This document shows, piece by piece, positions 3,639 through 19,398 of a DNA stretch of 25,519 nt (position 1 is its first letter; each line of letters starts with the position of its first letter). The notes under the pieces were generated by a model. It had not been told where the DNA came from. It was given only the letters and a program-made list of their open reading frames with translations, and made no database searches. The stretch is from positions 1 to 25,519 of IMG/VR virus record IMGVR_UViG_3300030506_000048; one strand, 5' to 3'. Origin of the DNA: a virus. A program made the translations under genes and the position numbers.

Positions 3639-3746
3639 TTAAAACAGAACATATCTGGGAGGGCTATAATTAAGTGGTCTAGCTTCATTCTTAGTCAACT
3701 TAATATCTGCCATTGTTGCTATATTATATAATATGTGAAGTTTCAT
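3639..3746 (-). CDS. Small protein, 35 aa, coupled to the Cys-triplet gene
   Basis: The start codon at 3746 overlaps the TGA stop of the upstream 125-aa Cys-triplet gene as ATGA, the same junction used throughout this block. The product begins MKLHILYNIATMADIKLTKN and ends in NYSPPRYVLF. A second in-frame ATG at 3713 would give a 24-aa peptide (MADIKLTKNEARPLNY...). The hydrophobic start could be a short membrane segment if the first ATG is used. I do not recognise the sequence. The ATGA junction is the main support, and the switch-like RNA follows 9 nt after the stop. Confidence 0.5.
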   Translation of the reverse strand: MKLHILYNIATMADIKLTKNEARPLNYSPPRYVLF

Positions 3747-4120
3747 AATTCTAATTCTAGCTTTCTATCATTAATATTGTATTCCTGTCTAATTTTAGCA
3801 ATTTTATTCTTTTTCTTAGATTTAATAGGCTGTGGTTTATAGTTTTTCTTAAAGTCTAATTCTATTGACTGTTTGCAACCTTTACAACCTATACAATTAT
3901 AACAAGCACTACAACGACTACAACTTCTACAACTATTACAATTAATACAATCACTACAATAACTACAATTAATACAACTACTACAATTACTACAACTACT
4001 ACAATCTCTACAATTATAACAATTAGTTAAGGTAGGTGAATATGTAGTAGCTAGTTCTTCAGTTATCCAACTATTACCGTTTTCGTCATACCATCTATCA
4101 GCTCTTTTTGTTAGTTTCAT
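3743..4120 (-). CDS. Cys-triplet repeat protein, 125 aa
   Basis: Three parts are visible. Residues 1-34 form the family cap (MKLTKRADRWYDENGNSW, then YSPTLTNC). Residues ~34-82 hold 17 cysteines at exactly every third position (CxxCxxC...) with mostly Ser, Asn, Asp and Arg between. A Lys-rich tail follows, ending in the family tag INDRKLELEL. The tail from KGCKQSIELDF onward is nearly identical to that of the 137-aa paralogue upstream. No other catalytic motif is seen. The regular Cys spacing suggests metal or Fe-S binding, or a disulphide-laddered solenoid; neither is proven. It overlaps genes on both sides by 4 nt. I do not recognise the family. Confidence 0.88.
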   Translation of the reverse strand: MKLTKRADRWYDENGNSWITEELATTYSPTLTNCYNCRDCSSCSNCSSCINCSYCSDCINCNSCRSCSRCSACYNCIGCKGCKQSIELDFKKNYKPQPIKSKKKNKIAKIRQEYNINDRKLELEL

Positions 4121-4299
4121 GATTGTGTTACTGAAATATAACGTAAAGAACTACCATTTAAAGCATAAGCGTAATTAAGTATTCTAACTTCATCATCACT
4201 TAAATCAACTATGGTAAGGTCTTCAAAATTTAATGTTCCATTTATCTTATCAACCAATATATAAGTATCATCGATTGTATTTTTATTGTTTATTATCAT
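4117..4299 (-). CDS. Small acidic protein, 60 aa, between two Cys-triplet genes
   Basis: The gene overlaps both neighbours by 4 nt (ATGA), so it is probably translated by coupling with the Cys-triplet genes on either side. The product is acidic, without cysteine and without a membrane segment (FEDLTIVDLSDDEVRILNY in the middle). I do not recognise it. Its position as a spacer between two near-identical Cys-triplet genes suggests either a partner protein or a passenger left by a duplication. Confidence 0.75.
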   Translation of the reverse strand: MIINNKNTIDDTYILVDKINGTLNFEDLTIVDLSDDEVRILNYAYALNGSSLRYISVTQS

Positions 4300-4709
4300 A
4301 GTTCAATCTCCAATCTTCTATCATTAATATTGTATTCCTGTCTAATTTTAGCAATTTTATTCTTTTTCTTAGATTTAATAGGCTGTGGTTTATAGTTTTT
4401 CTTAAAGTCTAATTCTATTGACTGTTTGCAACCTTTACAAATACTACAACCACTACAACGACTACAACTAATACAATTTCTACAATTACTACAATCACTA
4501 CAATTATAACAATTAATACAACTACTACAATTACTACAACTACTACAATAACTACAATTATAACAATCTCTACAACTACTACAATTACTACAACCTCTAC
4601 AATCATAACAATTAGTTAAGGTAGGTGAGTATTGAGTAGCTGATTCTTCAGTTATCCAACTATTATTATTTTCGTCATACCATCTATTATTTCTTTTTGT
4701 TATTGTCAT
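4296..4709 (-). CDS. Cys-triplet repeat protein, 137 aa
   Basis: The family cap comes first (NRWYDENNNSWITEE and SPTLTNC). It is followed by 21 cysteines at strict three-residue spacing (~residues 34-96). The Lys-rich tail and terminal tag (INDRRLEIEL) are almost the same as in the 125-aa paralogue, which points to recent duplication. The intervening residues are Ser, Asn, Asp, Arg and Tyr, giving a polar surface. The gene overlaps its upstream paralogue and the downstream 60-aa gene by 4 nt each. The Cys codons are almost all TGT. Metal binding or a Cys-lined solenoid is an inference. Confidence 0.88.
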   Translation of the reverse strand: MTITKRNNRWYDENNNSWITEESATQYSPTLTNCYDCRGCSNCSSCRDCYNCSYCSSCSNCSSCINCYNCSDCSNCRNCISCSRCSGCSICKGCKQSIELDFKKNYKPQPIKSKKKNKIAKIRQEYNINDRRLEIEL

Positions 4710-5122
4710 AAGTCTGGTTCCAACTTTCTATCATTAATGTCTAATTCTGGTCTTATCATAACTTCAGTCTTAATTTGAACTGGCTCTAGATGTGTTCCAT
4801 TATCACATTTATAACATTTTTTACAATCACTACAATCATTACAACTACTACAATCACTACAAACACTACAAACACTACAATTAATACAACCTCCACAACT
4901 ACTACAATCACTACAAACACTACAAACACTACAATTAATACAACCTCCACAAGTACTACAACCACTACAATTACTACAATCATCACAATAACTACAATCA
5001 TCACAATTACTACAATCTCTACAATTAGTTAGGGTAGGTGAGTATTGAGTAGCTGCTTCTTCTGATAACCAGCTATTATTGTTTTCGTCATACCATCTAT
5101 TGTTTATTTTTGTTATTGTCAT
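4706..5122 (-). CDS. Cys-triplet repeat protein with internal tandem duplication, 138 aa
   Basis: The cap (NRWYDENNNSWLSEEAATQ, SPTLTNC) is followed by 25 cysteines at every third residue. Within the repeat an 18-residue block, GGCINCSVCSVCSDCSSC, occurs twice in a row, matching an exact 54-nt DNA duplication (4841-4948). The C-terminus ends DINDRKLEPDL. It shares its cap and first repeats closely with the 150-aa paralogue at 6766-7218. It starts by ATGA overlap with the 88-aa gene and ends by ATGA overlap with the 137-aa gene. An 18-residue unit equals one coil of a left-handed beta-helix, which makes that fold worth testing. Confidence 0.88.
   Translation of the reverse strand: MTITKINNRWYDENNNSWLSEEAATQYSPTLTNCRDCSNCDDCSYCDDCSNCSGCSTCGGCINCSVCSVCSDCSSCGGCINCSVCSVCSDCSSCNDCSDCKKCYKCDNGTHLEPVQIKTEVMIRPELDINDRKLEPDL
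4841..4948. repeat. 54-bp exact tandem duplication inside a Cys-triplet gene
   Basis: Two identical 54-bp units (4841-4894 and 4895-4948) encode two copies of an 18-residue, six-cysteine block. The following sequence resembles the start of a third unit but diverges. This indicates repeat growth by slippage or unequal recombination in units of six Cys triplets. Confidence 0.9.
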
Positions 5123-5385
5123 AAGAAAGGGTCTAGATTTCTATCATTAATGTCTAAGATAGGTCGTTTTTCATTTGTTGTATCAATGCTAGGTTGCGCT
5201 GACCAATTTTTCTTATTTATAAAATTATAAAGTCCTTCACAATCACTACAATTAATACCATTACTACAATTATTACAATCATTACAACCACTACAATCCC
5301 AACAATCAATACAATCACTACAATTGTAGCAATCATTACAACCATCATGATTTATTAGTATTACTTTATAGTCATAAGTTTTCAT
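5119..5385 (-). CDS. Short, cap-less Cys-triplet protein, 88 aa
   Basis: This member lacks the WYDENNNSW cap. Instead it starts MKTYDYKVILINHDG and enters the CxxC repeat at residue 16. Eleven cysteines follow at three-residue spacing, with one position replaced by Gly (SNG where SNC is expected, a TGT-to-GGT type change). The C-terminal tag is present (DINDRNLDPFL). It is coupled by ATGA to the 138-aa paralogue downstream. It may be a divergent or decaying member, or a specialised short form. It starts 12 nt after the stop of the 95-aa gene. Confidence 0.82.
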   Translation of the reverse strand: MKTYDYKVILINHDGCNDCYNCSDCIDCWDCSGCNDCNNCSNGINCSDCEGLYNFINKKNWSAQPSIDTTNEKRPILDINDRNLDPFL

Positions 5386-6515: not shown

Positions 6516-6769
6516 ATATTTATCATTTTTATATTAATACTTTGTTTAGTTGGTAAAATTTTAATCTTTTCTAGGAAGGAATTCATCATCCTTAAATTCA
6601 TATCAGCTTCCATGAATACTGTTTCATTAGGTATGAAGTTTGTAAATTCTAGGTGATCTGGTTCAGTTATAATAGCTGTTTCTTCAGGTTTAAGCTTAAA
6701 TTCTGAGGTTATAGTATTACCATTTACTATATTTTTAGCTATAACTATTGATATGTTTGGATTGTTCAT
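6512..6769 (-). CDS. Hypothetical protein, 85 aa, coupled to a Cys-triplet gene
   Basis: The start overlaps the TGA of the 150-aa Cys-triplet gene (LEPDL junction), so expression is tied to it. The product begins MNNPNISIVIAKNIVNG. It has Glu/Pro-rich turns (KLKPEETAIITEPDHLEF) and a methionine-rich helix (FMEADMNLRMMNSFLEKI). No known domain is recognised. It is a candidate partner of the Cys-triplet protein by position only. Confidence 0.78.
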   Translation of the reverse strand: MNNPNISIVIAKNIVNGNTITSEFKLKPEETAIITEPDHLEFTNFIPNETVFMEADMNLRMMNSFLEKIKILPTKQSINIKMINI

Positions 6770-7218
6770 AAGTCTGGTTCTAATAGTCTGTTAGTACAGT
6801 CTATAAATGGTCTAATTACCGGTTCATATTTCATGTTATTAGTCCAGTCATTACAACCACTACAACTACTACAATTATTACAATTAATACAATGATCACA
6901 CCAACTACTACAACTATTACAACCACTACAATTATAACAAGTACTACAACCACTACAACTATTACAACCACTACAACTACTACAACTACTACAATCACTA
7001 CAAACACTACAAACACTACAACTAATACAACCTCTACAAGTACTACAACCACTACAATTACTACAATCATCACAATAACTACAATCATCACAATTACTAC
7101 AACCTCTACAATCTCTACAATTAGTTAGGGTAGGTGAGTATTGAGTAGCTGCTTCTTCTGATAACCAGCTATTATTGTTTTCGTCATACCATCTATTGTT
7201 TATTTTTGTTATTGTCAT
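6766..7218 (-). CDS. Largest Cys-triplet repeat protein of the block, 150 aa
   Basis: The cap (NRWYDENNNSWLSEEAATQ, SPTLTNC) leads into 30 cysteines spaced every third residue. One single-residue insertion (NSCSSWCDHC) shifts the phase near residue 107. The C-terminus ends CTNRLLEPDL, the family tag. The first ~14 repeats are nearly the same as in the 138-aa paralogue, and the rest diverges, so recombination among copies is likely. A hairpin lies just upstream of the start. The gene is coupled by ATGA to the 85-aa gene downstream. Likely a rigid, Cys-rich rod or metal-binding protein; function unknown. Confidence 0.88.
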   Translation of the reverse strand: MTITKINNRWYDENNNSWLSEEAATQYSPTLTNCRDCRGCSNCDDCSYCDDCSNCSGCSTCRGCISCSVCSVCSDCSSCSSCSGCNSCSGCSTCYNCSGCNSCSSWCDHCINCNNCSSCSGCNDWTNNMKYEPVIRPFIDCTNRLLEPDL

Positions 7219-7477: not shown

Positions 7478-8286
7478 ATTTTAGTATCATTAGTTGAAGT
7501 TGGATTAGTGATGAAACTTATCTGACTAGTACTTGTGACTTTATCCAGGGCATCAATAGAACAAGTAAACATGGCAACAGTATCGACACAACGCTTTTGT
7601 AGGACATTGGAAGAAGCTAAACTATAAGCATATGCAATACCACTACTAGTTTGCTGATAATTCAAACTTTGCCCTGGAGCTACACTATATTGTGAACTTT
7701 CTTGAATTGCATCCTGATTAGCACCTAGATAGATAAACTGCCAATTAAGACTTTGTTTATCCGCTATCCTTCTAGACAGATCATCCTTCTTAAACTTAGT
7801 ACTGCTATTTTCCGCCCCATCAGTAATGACTAGAAAAATAATCCTACCAGGCCTGTCTTCTTCTTTAGTCACATTAATAAACTGTGTGCAATCATCAATA
7901 GCTTTACAAAATGCATCTATTAATGGAGTTCCACCTACAGGACTTATCTCTTGAATAGGAGTGATGTCGTTAATATTAACTTTATCGAAATGAACTACAT
8001 AATTGAAATTAACATCAACAGGTTCTCCATGATTAGAATTATAGTTAGTAAACCAATTACTAGGATGACTAACACTACTAAAGAATACTACCGAAGTAGT
8101 ACATTTAACATTATTACTACTATCACTTAAATCTTCTGCAAAACTAAGATTTCTATCCTGGCTTGGCAATACCTTCTGTTGATTCAAGAAGTTATTTATG
8201 CCATCTACGGTAGCTTGTCTAGTATTAAACATGCTACCACTATTGTCTACTAATACTACGATATGTGTATAATTTGTATTACTCAT
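7474..8286 (-). CDS. VWA (von Willebrand factor A) domain protein, 270 aa
   Basis: The protein opens with a core strand and the metal-ion-dependent adhesion site: VVLVDNSGSM (DxSxS, residues ~12-19). A Thr in PVGGTPLIDAF follows (~130), then the third site in FLVITDGAEN (~165). These are the MIDAS elements of VWA domains, so divalent-metal-dependent binding of a protein partner is expected. The C-terminal part (SYQ/QQTSSGIAYAYSL) is family-typical of cytoplasmic VWA proteins in bacteria and phages. There is no signal peptide. It is coupled by ATGA both to the 123-aa Cys-triplet gene upstream and to the 72-aa gene downstream. Its partner could be a Cys-triplet protein; this is inference. Confidence 0.92.
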   Translation of the reverse strand: MSNTNYTHIVVLVDNSGSMFNTRQATVDGINNFLNQQKVLPSQDRNLSFAEDLSDSSNNVKCTTSVVFFSSVSHPSNWFTNYNSNHGEPVDVNFNYVVHFDKVNINDITPIQEISPVGGTPLIDAFCKAIDDCTQFINVTKEEDRPGRIIFLVITDGAENSSTKFKKDDLSRRIADKQSLNWQFIYLGANQDAIQESSQYSVAPGQSLNYQQTSSGIAYAYSLASSNVLQKRCVDTVAMFTCSIDALDKVTSTSQISFITNPTSTNDTKI

Positions 8287-8654
8287 AAGTCTGGTTCTAA
8301 AAGTCTCTGGGCCGGGTCAAATTCTTCTCTTAAAGTTGATTCACGAACAATTTCTTGGGGTTCTAGGTTTATTTTATTTAAATAATTAGCGCAATGTATG
8401 CAACTTCTACAAGCATGACAAGCATAACAATCTCTGCAATTACTACAATCATAACAATTAATACACGCAATACAATCATTACACCAACTACAACGACTAC
8501 AATCTCTACAATCTCTACACTCTCTACAATAACTACAATCTCTACAACTACTACAATTAGTTAGGGTAGGTGAGTATTGAGTAGCTTCTTCTTCAGTTAT
8601 CCAACTATTATTGTTTTCATCAAAGTATCTATTATTTCTTTTAATTATTGTCAT
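8283..8654 (-). CDS. Cys-triplet repeat protein, 123 aa
   Basis: The cap is present with small changes (NNRYFDENNNSWITEEEATQ, SPTLTNC). It is followed by 19 cysteines every third residue, with more Arg/Asp in this copy (CRDCSYCRECRDCRDC). The C-terminus ends AQRLLEPDL. The gene is the first Cys-triplet member on the minus-strand transcript and overlaps the 175-aa gene upstream and the VWA gene downstream by 4 nt each. The direct coupling to a VWA gene is the strongest clue to a functional partner. Confidence 0.88.
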   Translation of the reverse strand: MTIIKRNNRYFDENNNSWITEEEATQYSPTLTNCSSCRDCSYCRECRDCRDCSRCSWCNDCIACINCYDCSNCRDCYACHACRSCIHCANYLNKINLEPQEIVRESTLREEFDPAQRLLEPDL

Positions 8655-15926: not shown

Positions 15927-16577
15927 TTACTGGTTTTGTGTGTTTTGTGTGTGTTCCGTAGAATCATTAACTATCTGTTTAACCATCCGCTTCGCTAACT
16001 TTTTACCGGTAGGAAAATCTTCGAGAAGTGACCCGTAAAGCTGACCCCAGGCACTTTGCAAACCTTTCGTATGATTAAAAGGATCAAGAACAAAACATTT
16101 AGACTCTCCAGTATATACCTTACCAGTAACTGGATGTGTAAATGATACTTTGGTTGATCCGCCGTTAGGAAAAATATAATTAGTATGCCGGGCATAATTT
16201 TCAGCTATACCACCAGCAATTTCATTCAGAACATCCAATTCTCGTCTTGCATGAAGTTGATGTACTGGTTGAAGTACATCCTGGCACATACGCTTAAACT
16301 TTGAAAGGGCATGGACATATTGAGCTTTATTGGTTGCCCCCAATCTTCTCAATTTTTCCTTCCACACATTTGTCAATGATACACCATCCCAGTCACTAAA
16401 CCGCTTTACTTCAACGTTTACAGTGTAATTCAATTTTTCCAGAGTAGTACGAATTGTGGTTGGCTTTTCCAGATTCTCAAAAATGTCAGCCAGCACAATC
16501 ACATTTGTATCTGTAACTTTGCCAAGCCATTTCCTTTTTGCTGGTTTCTTTTGTTTGTCTTCTACTTTTTCATTCAT
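15927..16577 (-). CDS. Hypothetical protein, 216 aa
   Basis: I do not recognise this protein. A basic start (DKQKKPAKRKWLGKV) leads to a helical middle (LSKFKRMCQDVLQPVHQLH) and a segment like VSFTHPVTGKVYTGESKCFV. The end is Thr/Asn/Gln-rich (EHTQNTQNQ) because the AACACA-rich leader of the next gene is partly coding. Its start overlaps the stop of the MYG1-family gene as ATGA, so it may work with that enzyme. Confidence 0.78.
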   Translation of the reverse strand: MNEKVEDKQKKPAKRKWLGKVTDTNVIVLADIFENLEKPTTIRTTLEKLNYTVNVEVKRFSDWDGVSLTNVWKEKLRRLGATNKAQYVHALSKFKRMCQDVLQPVHQLHARRELDVLNEIAGGIAENYARHTNYIFPNGGSTKVSFTHPVTGKVYTGESKCFVLDPFNHTKGLQSAWGQLYGSLLEDFPTGKKLAKRMVKQIVNDSTEHTQNTQNQ

Positions 16578-17560
16578 AATTCATTTTGTTTGGTTGCTGC
16601 TATTGCTAGTTTTGTTGCTCCTTCTATTGTTTTTGCGGTTGCCAGGAATTGAGCAGAATGACAGAATATTGCCTCTTCTACTCCCGAAATTGCTTGAAGT
16701 TTTTGGTCAGTTAATCCTGCCCATTCTTTAGGAAATGGTATTCTAAGATTTTCCGGGCCATTACTTTGATTGCCATCCATTCTGACTGCTGTGACTACAT
16801 GAGCAGTTTTTTCCTGGTTAGGAAATATTACATGGGTTATATGAGGATGGTCTTTTACCACATCATACCAAGTACAAAACTCCTCTAAGTATAAGAAAGG
16901 ACTATGCTTGCTAATCCTAGCTTCGATATAAGGCTTGGCCAGAATCTCACTAGCCTTCTTTAAGATCAATCTAGTAAGCACAATACCAGCAGTACCAACC
17001 GCTAGTTTAAATGCATCATCATCTAAATCATAGCCTACTAAAGGAATTGGATTAAAACTACTTATAATTGATTGAATTGTAGCTACTTCACAAATGAGTT
17101 CTGAATGACTACTATTTCTAGCTACAATGTTTAGTTGACCTTGGTCCTGCCAATCAATACTTTTGACGAAGTTATCAACTTTATCAACAACATCAAATTC
17201 TAAGTTGGAGTCATAAATCTTTAACTTCTGCATACAATCATAAAGAAGATAACTTACAACTTGCCAACCATGAGCTAACCAGACTAGACCAAATGAGCTA
17301 TAGAGTGTCCCATCCTCCCTACAACTATTAAATCCAGGTTGGTGATGATCAAACTTACCATTAAGAGCATCATACTCACCCCCAACGTCTACCAAATAAT
17401 CAGCACCTATCCAATCAACAGGATCACGACTTCTTATTACCGTTACAGGGATCTCTTCAGAATAAAGTAGTTGAAGGGTGGCACAAGCAAATACTTCATC
17501 GGCGTGAAAAATTCCTGTATGGGTCACTATAGTTATTTTTTCAGTTTTTGGCTCTTCCAT
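16574..17560 (-). CDS. MYG1-family (UPF0160) DHH-type phosphoesterase / exonuclease, 328 aa
   Basis: Motifs in order match MYG1 proteins. THTGIFHADEVFACATL (residues ~13-29, metal site) comes first, then RSRDPVDWIGADYLVDVGGEYD and KFDHHQPGF (~45-77, the DHH-like HH pair), then SSFGLVWLAHG. The C-terminal region has AVRMDGNQ, PFPKEWAGL and ISGVEEAIFCHSAQFLATAKTIEGA. Length is in the family range (~290-350), with all key His and Asp residues present. Eukaryotic MYG1 is a 3'-5' RNA exonuclease; a metal-dependent nuclease role in RNA or nucleotide turnover is therefore plausible. It lies between a Cys-triplet gene and an unknown gene, coupled to the latter by ATGA. Confidence 0.93.
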   Translation of the reverse strand: MEEPKTEKITIVTHTGIFHADEVFACATLQLLYSEEIPVTVIRSRDPVDWIGADYLVDVGGEYDALNGKFDHHQPGFNSCREDGTLYSSFGLVWLAHGWQVVSYLLYDCMQKLKIYDSNLEFDVVDKVDNFVKSIDWQDQGQLNIVARNSSHSELICEVATIQSIISSFNPIPLVGYDLDDDAFKLAVGTAGIVLTRLILKKASEILAKPYIEARISKHSPFLYLEEFCTWYDVVKDHPHITHVIFPNQEKTAHVVTAVRMDGNQSNGPENLRIPFPKEWAGLTDQKLQAISGVEEAIFCHSAQFLATAKTIEGATKLAIAATKQNEL

Positions 17561-17563
17561 AAA

Positions 17564-18079
17564 TCAGATTTTGGTTTTGATAATGTGTTCAACCAGATTG
17601 ATTAACTTCTTATACTGCTTACCAAACTTATTGTTTTTATGAGTCTTTTCTACTTTGTTTTTGAACTCAGTCAAATTTCCTGTAAAACAACCACAATCTA
17701 CTTGAACATTCTTTCCTACCCAATAAATGGTAGTTTGAGCGTTTCTAGAACCAATTTTAGAAGAAGTAAATCTTTGTGGGTTAGATTTGAAACCAATACA
17801 AGTAATACAACTTATACAATCTCTACAATCTCTACAATAATTACAACTATTACAATCTCTACAATCATAGCAACCATTACAACCTTTACAATAAATACAA
17901 TCATTGCAATATCTACAATTACTACAATTATTACAACTACTACAATTATCACACCAACCACAATCAATACAACTAGTACAACCGGTTAGGGTAGGTGAGT
18001 ATAGAGTAGCTAATTCTTCTGATAACCAGCTATTATTGTTTTCGTCATACCATCTATTATATCTTTTTGTTATTTTCAT
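17564..18079 (-). CDS. Cys-triplet repeat protein with extra C-terminal domain, ~171 aa
   Basis: I place the start at 18079 (MKITKRYNRWYDENNNSW), as the family cap begins there; an ATG at 18097 would add six residues. After SPTLTGC come 21 cysteines at every third residue (to ~residue 95). A separate ~65-residue domain follows: GSRNAQTTIYWVGKNVQVDCGCFTG, then a Lys-rich helical end (FGKQYKKLINLVEHIIK). A domain of this form, with aromatic-V-x-CGCF and a helical end, occurs in short phage proteins that I cannot name. The family tag is absent. It overlaps the upstream 83-aa gene by 23 nt and lies 3 nt before MYG1. Confidence 0.87.
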   Translation of the reverse strand: MKITKRYNRWYDENNNSWLSEELATLYSPTLTGCTSCIDCGWCDNCSSCNNCSNCRYCNDCIYCKGCNGCYDCRDCNSCNYCRDCRDCISCITCIGFKSNPQRFTSSKIGSRNAQTTIYWVGKNVQVDCGCFTGNLTEFKNKVEKTHKNNKFGKQYKKLINLVEHIIKTKI

Positions 18080-18308
18080 AGTATTCAAAAGCTTCATCTA
18101 ATTGTTTTAAAGCCTGGTCACGTTTTGACCCTTCCTTATACTTGAGATTAATACCTTTATTACCAGTAAGTCCAATATACAACCATGCTTTAAGTAGATC
18201 TCTAGGTTGAGGTGATGGACTATCAAACTCATTATATGCATAATAATTAGTTATAGCTGATAAAACTAACCTATGTCCATCTATAAATATAATTTTAGAA
18301 TTTTTCAT
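18057..18308 (-). CDS. Hypothetical protein, 83 aa
   Basis: I do not recognise this protein. It starts MKNSKIIFIDGHRLVLSAIT and has a helical centre (RDLLKAWLYIGLTGNKG) and an acidic helical end (LDEAFEYYENNKK). No membrane segment is evident. The leader is AACAAAACTAAAACAATG, the G-poor type. It is the first protein gene downstream of tRNA-Cys on the minus transcript, 23 nt after its CCA. Confidence 0.75.
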   Translation of the reverse strand: MKNSKIIFIDGHRLVLSAITNYYAYNEFDSPSPQPRDLLKAWLYIGLTGNKGINLKYKEGSKRDQALKQLDEAFEYYENNKKI

Positions 18309-18518: not shown

Positions 18519-18658
18519 CGGAGCCGTGGGCCGGATTTGAACCGACATCGGCCGAATTTACTTCGGTGCTCTTCTTATTGAGCTACTTTTTCAAAAGACA
18601 TTAATTAGCTAGATTAACGCGCGCTCTAGCCAACAACGTACAGTTAATAATTCACGGC
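18519..18658 (-). tRNA. Disrupted tRNA-like element (anticodon not assignable)
   Basis: A clear T arm (GTCGG-TTCAAAT-CCGGC), a D-arm-like GCTC...GAGC and a 3' acceptor strand CCACGGC plus U73 are present (18519-18592). The seven bases directly 5' of the D arm (GAAAAAG) do not pair with the acceptor strand. A matching strand GCCGTGA lies ~60 nt further upstream (18652-18658) with a structured insert between. The central stem CCGAA/TTCGG has only a 5-nt loop (GTAAA), too small for an anticodon loop. CCG replaces CCA. It is either a decayed tRNA, an intron-like interrupted tRNA, or a tRNA-like RNA. Confidence 0.5.
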
Positions 18659-18695: not shown

Positions 18696-19107
18696 TGGTG
18701 GACGTGGTTGGATTCTCACCAACGTGTTTACTTCAAAACAATATGATTTCTACAAGCTTAGCCAGAATTTTAATACTAGAATAAGGAACTGACTCAACCT
18801 TAGCTATTCCAGTATTTTGTCCTTGTTAATTAGATTGTAATAGTACATAGACTAAACTATCACAACTCACTTATAGATTACGGTTCGTTAGTCCCATAAG
18901 TTTCAGACCAGGAACCGGTATTGGTTAAACCAACACTTCATTGACGGAGGGAACGAACTCATCCGCTTGCGCAGAAATCGCCATCGCTTCATCAAGAATG
19001 CTCATTTTGTTAGCATTTAACGTTTGCATTCATTTTTAGGTAGCCGAGAATGCTTCTACCGCTTGCTGTCATATCTTTCTAAAATAAGTCGATTATGTTA
19101 CACGCCC
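18696..19107 (-). ncRNA. ssrA: tmRNA (transfer-messenger RNA), one-piece, with divergent 29-aa tag
   Basis: The 5' strand GGGCGTG and 3' strand CACGTCC pair with a G3-U70 wobble, followed by A73 and CCA, which are the alanine identity elements. The 3' part has the tmRNA hallmark GGCTAAGCTTGTAG and a T stem GTTGG/CCAAC whose loop is TGAGAAT, lacking the usual TTC. Three H-type pseudoknots are visible: PK1 at 19026-19060, PK2 at 18869-18917 and PK3 at 18816-18866. Eleven nt after PK1 a GCT resume codon (19014) opens a tag starting ANKMSILDEAMAIS and ending SVNEVLV with a TAA at 18925-18927. It would rescue stalled ribosomes and tag nascent proteins. The tag lacks the ALAA end. An upstream GCA would give only ANVKC. 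Confidence 0.9.
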
Positions 19108-19135: not shown

Positions 19136-19164
19136 CTAAATTATAATATGCTAGTATAATTTAG
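19136..19164 (-). promoter_or_regulatory. 10-bp hairpin upstream of the tmRNA
   Basis: CTAAATTATA and TATAATTTAG form a perfect 10-bp, AT-rich stem with a 9-nt loop, ending 28 nt before the tmRNA 5' end. It may guide 5' processing, or carry a promoter element. Confidence 0.5.
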
Positions 19165-19170
19165 TTAAAG

Positions 19171-19264: not shown

Positions 19265-19398
19265 TGCAGGAGGTAGGATTCGAACCTACAAGACGAATCT
19301 AATATCTTCAATGCTACGTTCGTCGACGGAGACCGGCTACTGATTGAAGTCAGGTAAGCCTACTATCCGTTGCGTCTGCCAATTCCACCACTACCTGC
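19265..19398 (-). ncRNA. tRNA-Leu-like RNA with two enlarged arms
   Basis: The 5' part GTGGTGGAATTGGCAGACGC is the typical D region of a leucine tRNA. The T arm GTAGG-TTCGAAT-CCTAC is canonical and the outer acceptor pairs GCAGG/CCTGC match. The middle is not a normal anticodon arm: ACGGA/TCCGT encloses a 35-nt segment with its own hairpin (GGCT..CTGA-CTTCAA-TCAG..AGCC). A second long arm, GACGAA/TTCGTC, has a 21-nt loop. The loop CTTCAA is complementary to TTGAAG in the second loop. At 134 nt it is ~48 nt longer than a normal tRNA-Leu. No CCA is encoded. It could be an interrupted tRNA or a tRNA-mimic RNA. Confidence 0.6.

What the first reader, a model, noticed from the sequence alone, without database searches (positions are those of the whole stretch)
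18696..19107. Phage tmRNA with a long, non-ALAA tag
G3-U70, A73-CCA, three pseudoknots and the CTAAGC-TGTAG element identify a tmRNA. The likely tag has 29 residues (ANKMSIL...EVLV) and lacks the usual ALAA degron. The T loop TGAGAAT also lacks the usual TTC. A phage tmRNA with a different tag could redirect stalled products away from ClpXP or to another protease.
Basis: partly seen in the sequence, partly recalled or inferred. Interest (0 to 1): 0.85.

Follow-up and report, generated by a model that had tools for sequence, protein, structure and literature searches.

The report
Phage tmRNA with long divergent tag
An uncultured large phage carries its own complete copy of the bacterial ribosome-rescue RNA (tmRNA); its 29-residue tag without the usual degradation signal turns out to be a recurrent phage style, while its rebuilt elbow, the contact that folds the tRNA-like part, is the more unusual feature.

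Summary
Minus strand 19107-18696 encodes a complete one-piece tmRNA (Rfam RF00023, 78.1 bits, E 4.9e-29). ARAGORN misses it. The gene recurs in further contigs of the same phage (pieces overlap to about 187 kb). No SmpB, ClpP or Lon was found there, so it should act through host factors.

The tag is not exceptional. Of 71 distinct long tags (at least 15 aa) from viral tmRNAs, 20 do not end in AA. The cultured Bixzunavirus Colt ends in ALV. Degradation by another protease is untested.

The elbow is less ordinary. The canonical contacts G18-U55 and G19-C56 read A18-G55 and U19-A56. A18 with G55 recurs in at least two other phage lineages, A18 never occurs with U55, and the 19-56 swap keeps a Watson-Crick pair. 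No bacterial tmRNA with this T loop was found in 84,980 species genomes.

Most likely this is a working phage ribosome-rescue RNA that borrows host SmpB, AlaRS and proteases: a new variant of a known kind.

The parts
18696..19107 (-). tmRNA (ssrA-like) gene, 412 nt, one-piece form
   Evidence: Rfam RF00023 78.1 bits, E 4.9e-29; identical in most contigs of the same phage, one SNP (nt 307 A>G) in L005/L009
19101..19107 (-). acceptor stem, 5' strand GGGCGUG
   Evidence: pairs at all 7 positions with 18700-18706, G3-U70 wobble
18696..18706 (-). acceptor 3' strand CACGUCC + A73 + encoded CCA
   Evidence: sequence
19095..19096 (-). D-loop dinucleotide A18 U19 (tRNA numbering) in place of G18 G19
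   Evidence: alignment to RF00023; survey
18707..18723 (-). T arm GUUGG-UGAGAAU-CCAAC (U54 G55 A56 G57 A58)
19026..19060 (-). pseudoknot PK1 (GGUAG/CUACC and GCAUUC/GAAUGC)
18928..19014 (-). tag reading frame, resume codon GCU, 29 codons ANKMSILDEAMAISAQADEFVPSVNEVLV
   Evidence: cmscan alignment of the resume region; other frames closed
18925..18927 (-). tag stop codon UAA in the loop of H5
18918..18936 (-). helix H5 GUGUUGG-UUUAA-CCAAUAC
18869..18917 (-). pseudoknot PK2 (CGGUUC/GAACCG and ACUUAU 18901-18896 / AUAAGU 18874-18869)
   Evidence: the first ACUUAU printed there is an unrelated upstream copy, position corrected by reading the sequence
18830..18865 (-). pseudoknot PK3 (UUGUGAUAGU/ACUAUUACAA and UUAG/CUAA)
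18760..18816 (-). pseudoknot PK4 (AAUACUGGAAUA/UAUUCUAGUAUU and AGUCAG/CUGGCU)
   Evidence: the only SNP seen (nt 307 A>G) can turn an A-U pair into G-U here
18750..18761 (-). conserved CUAAGC-UUGUAG element
19140..19168 (-). promoter-like TTAACT-17-TATAAT, 10 of 12, about 33 nt upstream of the mature 5' end
   Evidence: the number of promoter-like sites in the region equals chance, so suggestive only

Best explanation
This is a phage-encoded one-piece tmRNA that performs trans-translation during infection. Inferred path: transcription from its own promoter; processing by host RNase P; charging with alanine by host AlaRS through G3-U70/A73; binding of host SmpB; entry into ribosomes stalled on cut or non-stop mRNA; addition of Ala plus the 29-residue tag; release at the UAA in H5. 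The phage gains recycled ribosomes. The tag is most likely still a C-terminal degradation signal read by host proteases that accept nonpolar ends, perhaps more slowly than ALAA. Shown: the RNA anatomy, the reading frame, recurrence in several contigs of the phage, and lack of detectable SmpB/ClpP/Lon in the phage pieces held. Inferred: transcription, charging, SmpB use, rescue, and the fate of tagged proteins. The elbow is rebuilt rather than lost: A18-G55 and a Watson-Crick U19-A56 replace G18-U55 and G19-C56.
For: Full-length covariance match. All acceptor positions pair, G3-U70, A73-CCA, four pseudoknots, resume motif U-A-A-A-U before GCU, stop in the H5 loop, other frames closed. The SmpB-contacting nucleotides of E. 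coli tmRNA A15, U17, C18, G19 (PMC8363625) are kept as A14, U16, C17, G18. Recurs in several contigs with one structure-neutral SNP. Comparable long phage tags and complete tmRNAs in many viral contigs and in cultured Colt (72.1 bits; tag). Elbow change paired on both sides, with A18-G55 recurring in the L024 clade and L161, and possibly L208 (tmRNA identity of L024, L161, L208, L149 by cmscan). No SmpB, ClpP or Lon in the phage pieces searched.
Against: No expression, charging or tagging data. Host unknown, so its ssrA and protease set could not be compared. ARAGORN rejects the gene. Only one phage species carries this sequence, so neither the tag nor U19-A56 can be tested for conservation. 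A 29-codon open frame alone has about a 17% chance in shuffled sequence; the argument rests on the resume site and the stop in H5.
Confidence: 0.8

Rival explanations
1. The divergent tag redirects products away from ClpXP, to another protease (Lon, FtsH, Tsp) or to stability, as in Mycoplasma where the tag changed end and became a Lon substrate.
For: The tag ends in VLV and lacks LAA; Mycoplasma is a precedent (PMC3985003; PMC9382460). 20 of 71 distinct long viral tags do not end in AA.
Against: E. coli tag variants LVA and AAV are still used as degradation tags. No phage Lon or ClpP was found. lambda-immP22, which needs host tmRNA, depends mainly on ribosome rescue.
Confidence: 0.3
2. A decoy RNA that titrates SmpB and inhibits host trans-translation, as shown for the TLD-only RNA of mycobacteriophage DS6A.
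For: The DS6A precedent (PMC4131195). A rebuilt elbow could alter binding.
Against: The full mRNA-like domain with PK1-PK4, the resume motif and the H5 stop are kept, which a decoy would not need.
Confidence: 0.07
3. A decaying remnant of an acquired host ssrA gene.
For: Low bit score for a tmRNA; no ARAGORN call; a degenerate tRNA-like sequence lies nearby.
Against: Every long-range helix is intact, the tag frame is open, the elbow change is paired on both sides, and the only SNP between phage variants is compatible with pairing.
Confidence: 0.06
4. A host chromosomal tmRNA on a contaminating or prophage contig.
For: Prophages often sit in ssrA.
Against: The contigs overlap into one phage of about 187 kb with tail sheath, packaging and RNA polymerase homologues. 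No bacterial tmRNA with this T loop was found in 84,980 species genomes.
Confidence: 0.02

Closest known systems
Bixzunavirus (Bxz1-type, e.g. Colt) phage tmRNA
   Same: Phage-encoded one-piece tmRNA with a long tag ending in LV (ATDTDATVTDAEIEAFFAEEAAALV, 25 aa)
   Different: ARAGORN recognises the Colt gene but not this one; its elbow was not read here; tag sequences are unrelated apart from the last two residues
Bacillus phage G tmRNA
   Same: tmRNA in a very large myophage; tag not ending in AA (AKLNITNNELQVA)
   Different: Short tag (13 aa); recognised by ARAGORN
Freshwater and other phage tmRNAs L024 clade, L161, L208 (IMG/VR)
   Same: G55 in the T loop, with A18 in the D loop in most; L161 also has a tag ending in ALV
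   Different: They keep G19-C56; tags of the L024 clade end in LAA, VAA or AAA and begin with Gly; one L024-clade member (L149) has G18 with G55; the L208 D loop can be aligned two ways
Mycoplasma / Mesoplasma florum tmRNA tag
   Same: Long tag lacking ALAA (PMC3985003, PMC9382460)
   Different: Cellular gene in hosts without ClpXP; the tag ends in AFA and is read by Lon; no sequence relation seen
E. coli ssrA
   Same: RF00023 fold, G3-U70, H5 stop, PK1-PK4, SmpB-contact nucleotides
   Different: 10-residue encoded tag ending ALAA; canonical G18-U55 and G19-C56

Membership tests
tmRNA (RF00023, one-piece) | covariance-model score above the gathering score over the full model | tested here: met
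   78.1 vs 47 bits, model 1-374
tmRNA (RF00023, one-piece) | alanine identity: G3-U70 and A73 in a 7-position acceptor stem with CCA | tested here: met
   charging itself not testable here
tmRNA (RF00023, one-piece) | tag frame with resume motif upstream and a stop in the H5 loop | tested here: met
   GCU resume, UAA in H5
tmRNA (RF00023, one-piece) | four pseudoknots | tested here: met
   (PK3 S2 is only 4 bp); no covariation test possible for a single sequence type
tmRNA (RF00023, one-piece) | canonical elbow: G18-U55 and G19-C56, T loop UUC | tested here: not met
   A18-G55 and U19-A56; this is a tRNA-like consensus, not required by the family model, and L024, L161 and L208 also lack U55 yet score 74.0, 103.6 and 89.6 bits
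tmRNA (RF00023, one-piece) | function with SmpB in trans-translation | not testable with these tools
   contact nucleotides kept (PMC8363625); no assay
ALAA-type ssrA degron | tag ends in LAA | tested here: not met
   tag ends in VLV
Mycoplasma-type Lon-directed tag | long tag ending in AFA, recognised by Lon in a host without ClpXP | tested here: not met
   long but ends VLV; host and its proteases unknown
TLD-only inhibitory tmRNA (DS6A type) | little more than the tRNA-like domain | tested here: not met
   412 nt with full mRNA-like domain

The most novel reading that the evidence does not exclude
Some phages have evolved a class of tmRNA insulated from the host. The elbow is rebuilt (A18-G55, here also U19-A56), which removes U55, the site isomerised by host TruB in tRNAs, and the usual LAA signal is gone, so that phage-driven ribosome rescue and the fate of the tagged proteins run under different rules from the host's own system.
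Probability: 0.15. Interest if true: 0.75.

Novelty: new variant of a known kind. Interest (0 to 1): 0.45.

Why it matters
Phage tmRNAs are known but rarely analysed: 402 of 18,146 phage genomes carried one by ARAGORN (PMC9004378). Here ARAGORN made no call for 39 of 137 distinct viral candidate sequences, including almost all with a G55 T loop, so that count is probably low. The survey gives a testable question: are phage tags not ending in AA degraded by the host, or not? It also suggests a tertiary co-change in the elbow (18-55 and 19-56) that would bear on how strictly SmpB and the ribosome read that surface.

Tried and rejected
DNA similarity of the tmRNA to cultured phages: none, nor for the L024-clade tmRNA. 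Searches with the phage's tail sheath, RNA polymerase and portal-region proteins gave only the same phage, so the tag and U19-A56 could not be checked in relatives. Homology of the tag to other long tags: best score 38 against L112, 3 of 500 shuffles reach it; suggestive only. Apparent T-loop twins in L140/L141/L144 and similar contigs, in L180, and in the bacterial contig L179 are chance matches outside tmRNAs. A Bacteroidota survey found 45 canonical and no true G55 tmRNAs in 395 genomes, but the exact pattern detects only about 11% of genomes there, so its power is low. Own-genome Rfam search returned nothing because of its loose first filter, and was set aside. The host could not be identified with the evidence gathered.

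Full report
OBSERVATION. The feature is real and is on the minus strand. cmscan matches the full RF00023 model at 19107..18696 with 78.1 bits, E 4.9e-29 (repeated). ARAGORN does not call it, nor does the fast genome search, which uses a loose first filter. The acceptor stem pairs at all 7 positions with G3-U70, then A73 and CCA. CTAAGC-TGTAG is present. Pseudoknots PK1 to PK4 can all be drawn. The resume codon GCU (19014) is preceded by U-A-A-A-U, as the model expects; the frame gives ANKMSILDEAMAISAQADEFVPSVNEVLV and ends at a UAA inside the H5 loop; the other two frames stop after 1 and 3 codons. An open frame of this length alone is not rare (about 17% of shuffles), so the weight lies on the resume site and the H5 stop.

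THE CARRIER. The window is a 25.5-kb viral record. The same sequence lies in IMG/VR contigs of 8 to 127 kb; a further 151-kb contig joins them, for a union of about 187 kb (my arithmetic from the positions of the shared genes). It encodes a tail sheath-like protein, packaging and RNA polymerase beta-like proteins, with only weak similarity to cultured phages. The tmRNA is identical in all copies except one A>G at nt 307 in L005/L009, which can turn an A-U pair of PK4 into G-U. SmpB was sought in nine records of this phage, ClpP in seven and Lon in four; none was found. The pieces are fragments, so absence from the whole phage is not proven.

THE TAG IN CONTEXT. Pattern scans of viral contigs gave 137 distinct candidate tmRNA sequences. 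These are defined by the CTAAGC..CCACCA pattern, a paired acceptor and a D-loop motif; only part of them were also checked with cmscan, and many are host-like ssrA genes in prophage contigs. Tags came from ARAGORN or from my own rule. Among 71 distinct tags of 15 aa or more, 51 end in AA, 11 in VA, 3 in AV, 2 in TA, 2 in VE and 2 in LV. Among cultured phages, Colt encodes ATDTDATVTDAEIEAFFAEEAAALV and phage G AKLNITNNELQVA. So a long phage tag without ALAA is a recurrent style. Phage tmRNAs have been catalogued before (PMC4131195; PMC9004378).

THE ELBOW. In tRNA the D and T loops meet through G18-U55 and G19-C56 (PMC7912444). In the survey 119 sequences read GG with UC. The window reads A18, U19 with G55, A56. 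The L024 clade and L161 read A18, G19 with G55, C56 (L161 after shifting the T arm by one base, as its own stem requires). L208 reads the same way if the spacing to UUCGAC is held, but its D loop can be aligned otherwise. L149, inside the L024 clade, has G18 with G55, and L074 in that cluster has the canonical pair. A18 never occurs with U55. By clusters, 3 against 23 gives Fisher p 4e-4; this ignores the relatedness of clusters, and I chose which clusters were unambiguous after seeing the data, so it is descriptive. U19-A56 is seen in one phage only and has roughly a one in three chance of being complementary by accident. The nucleotides that touch SmpB in E. coli tmRNA (A15, U17, C18, G19; PMC8363625) are kept. 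A scan of 84,980 species genomes for this T loop after CTAAGC-TGTAG gave one hit, in a coding region.

MECHANISM. The best reading is a working rescue RNA that relies on host SmpB, AlaRS, EF-Tu and proteases. A promoter-like TTAACT-17-TATAAT lies about 33 nt upstream, the best of six sites in a region where six are expected by chance. What happens to tagged proteins is open: a nonpolar end may still be degraded, since LVA and AAV variants of the E. coli tag are used as degradation tags (PMC9382460); Mycoplasma shows that a switch to Lon can evolve (PMC3985003). For lambda-immP22, which needs host tmRNA, ribosome rescue matters more than proteolysis, with a possible secondary role of tagging (PMC2862035).

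VERDICT. Observation confirmed; interpretation partly supported. The tag is a new example of a recurrent phage style; the elbow is the part that a specialist may not expect. New variant of a known kind.

Noticed in passing
window 3743-4120, 4296-4709, 4706-5122, 5119-5385, 6766-7218, 8283-8654, 17564-18097, 23983-24378 (minus): Eight related small proteins, most with a shared start (MTITKRNNRWYDENNNSW..) followed by a run of Cys at every third residue (CxxCxxC..); blastn shows DNA copies about 78-93% alike.
   Followed up: no
window 19267-19397 (minus): A 131-nt tRNA-Leu-like sequence with a good T arm and D-arm text but long extra arms; neither ARAGORN nor Rfam calls it; it folds to -40.5 kcal/mol, z -1.4.
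   Followed up: partly
window 18529-18586 (minus): Degenerate tRNA-like sequence between the tmRNA and tRNA-Cys, 28.9 bits, just below the gathering score of 29; no matching acceptor stem seen by eye.
   Followed up: partly
L161:10189-10574 (minus): Another phage tmRNA (103.6 bits) with A18/G55 and a tag ending in ALV (AKTAKNTRNSFCVVSSRATALV), missed by ARAGORN.
   Followed up: partly
L099, L229: Viral tmRNA tags that end in a charged residue (..ALLLVE); PMC4131195 (2014) knew only Carsonella with a charged end.
   Followed up: no
viral loci listed: ARAGORN makes no call for 39 of 137 distinct viral tmRNA candidate sequences, so published counts of phage tmRNAs based on it are probably low.
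   Followed up: partly
L136:8456-11014: Head-maturation-protease-like ORF that appears to carry an intein-like insert (matches to an endonuclease and to unrelated phage proteins over residues 50-455).
   Followed up: no
window 16574-17560 (minus): Phage-borne MYG1-family (UPF0160) protein, Pfam E 9.5e-55.
   Followed up: no
L085:8700-8759, L119:3996-4062: Pistol ribozymes close to phage tmRNA genes.
   Followed up: no
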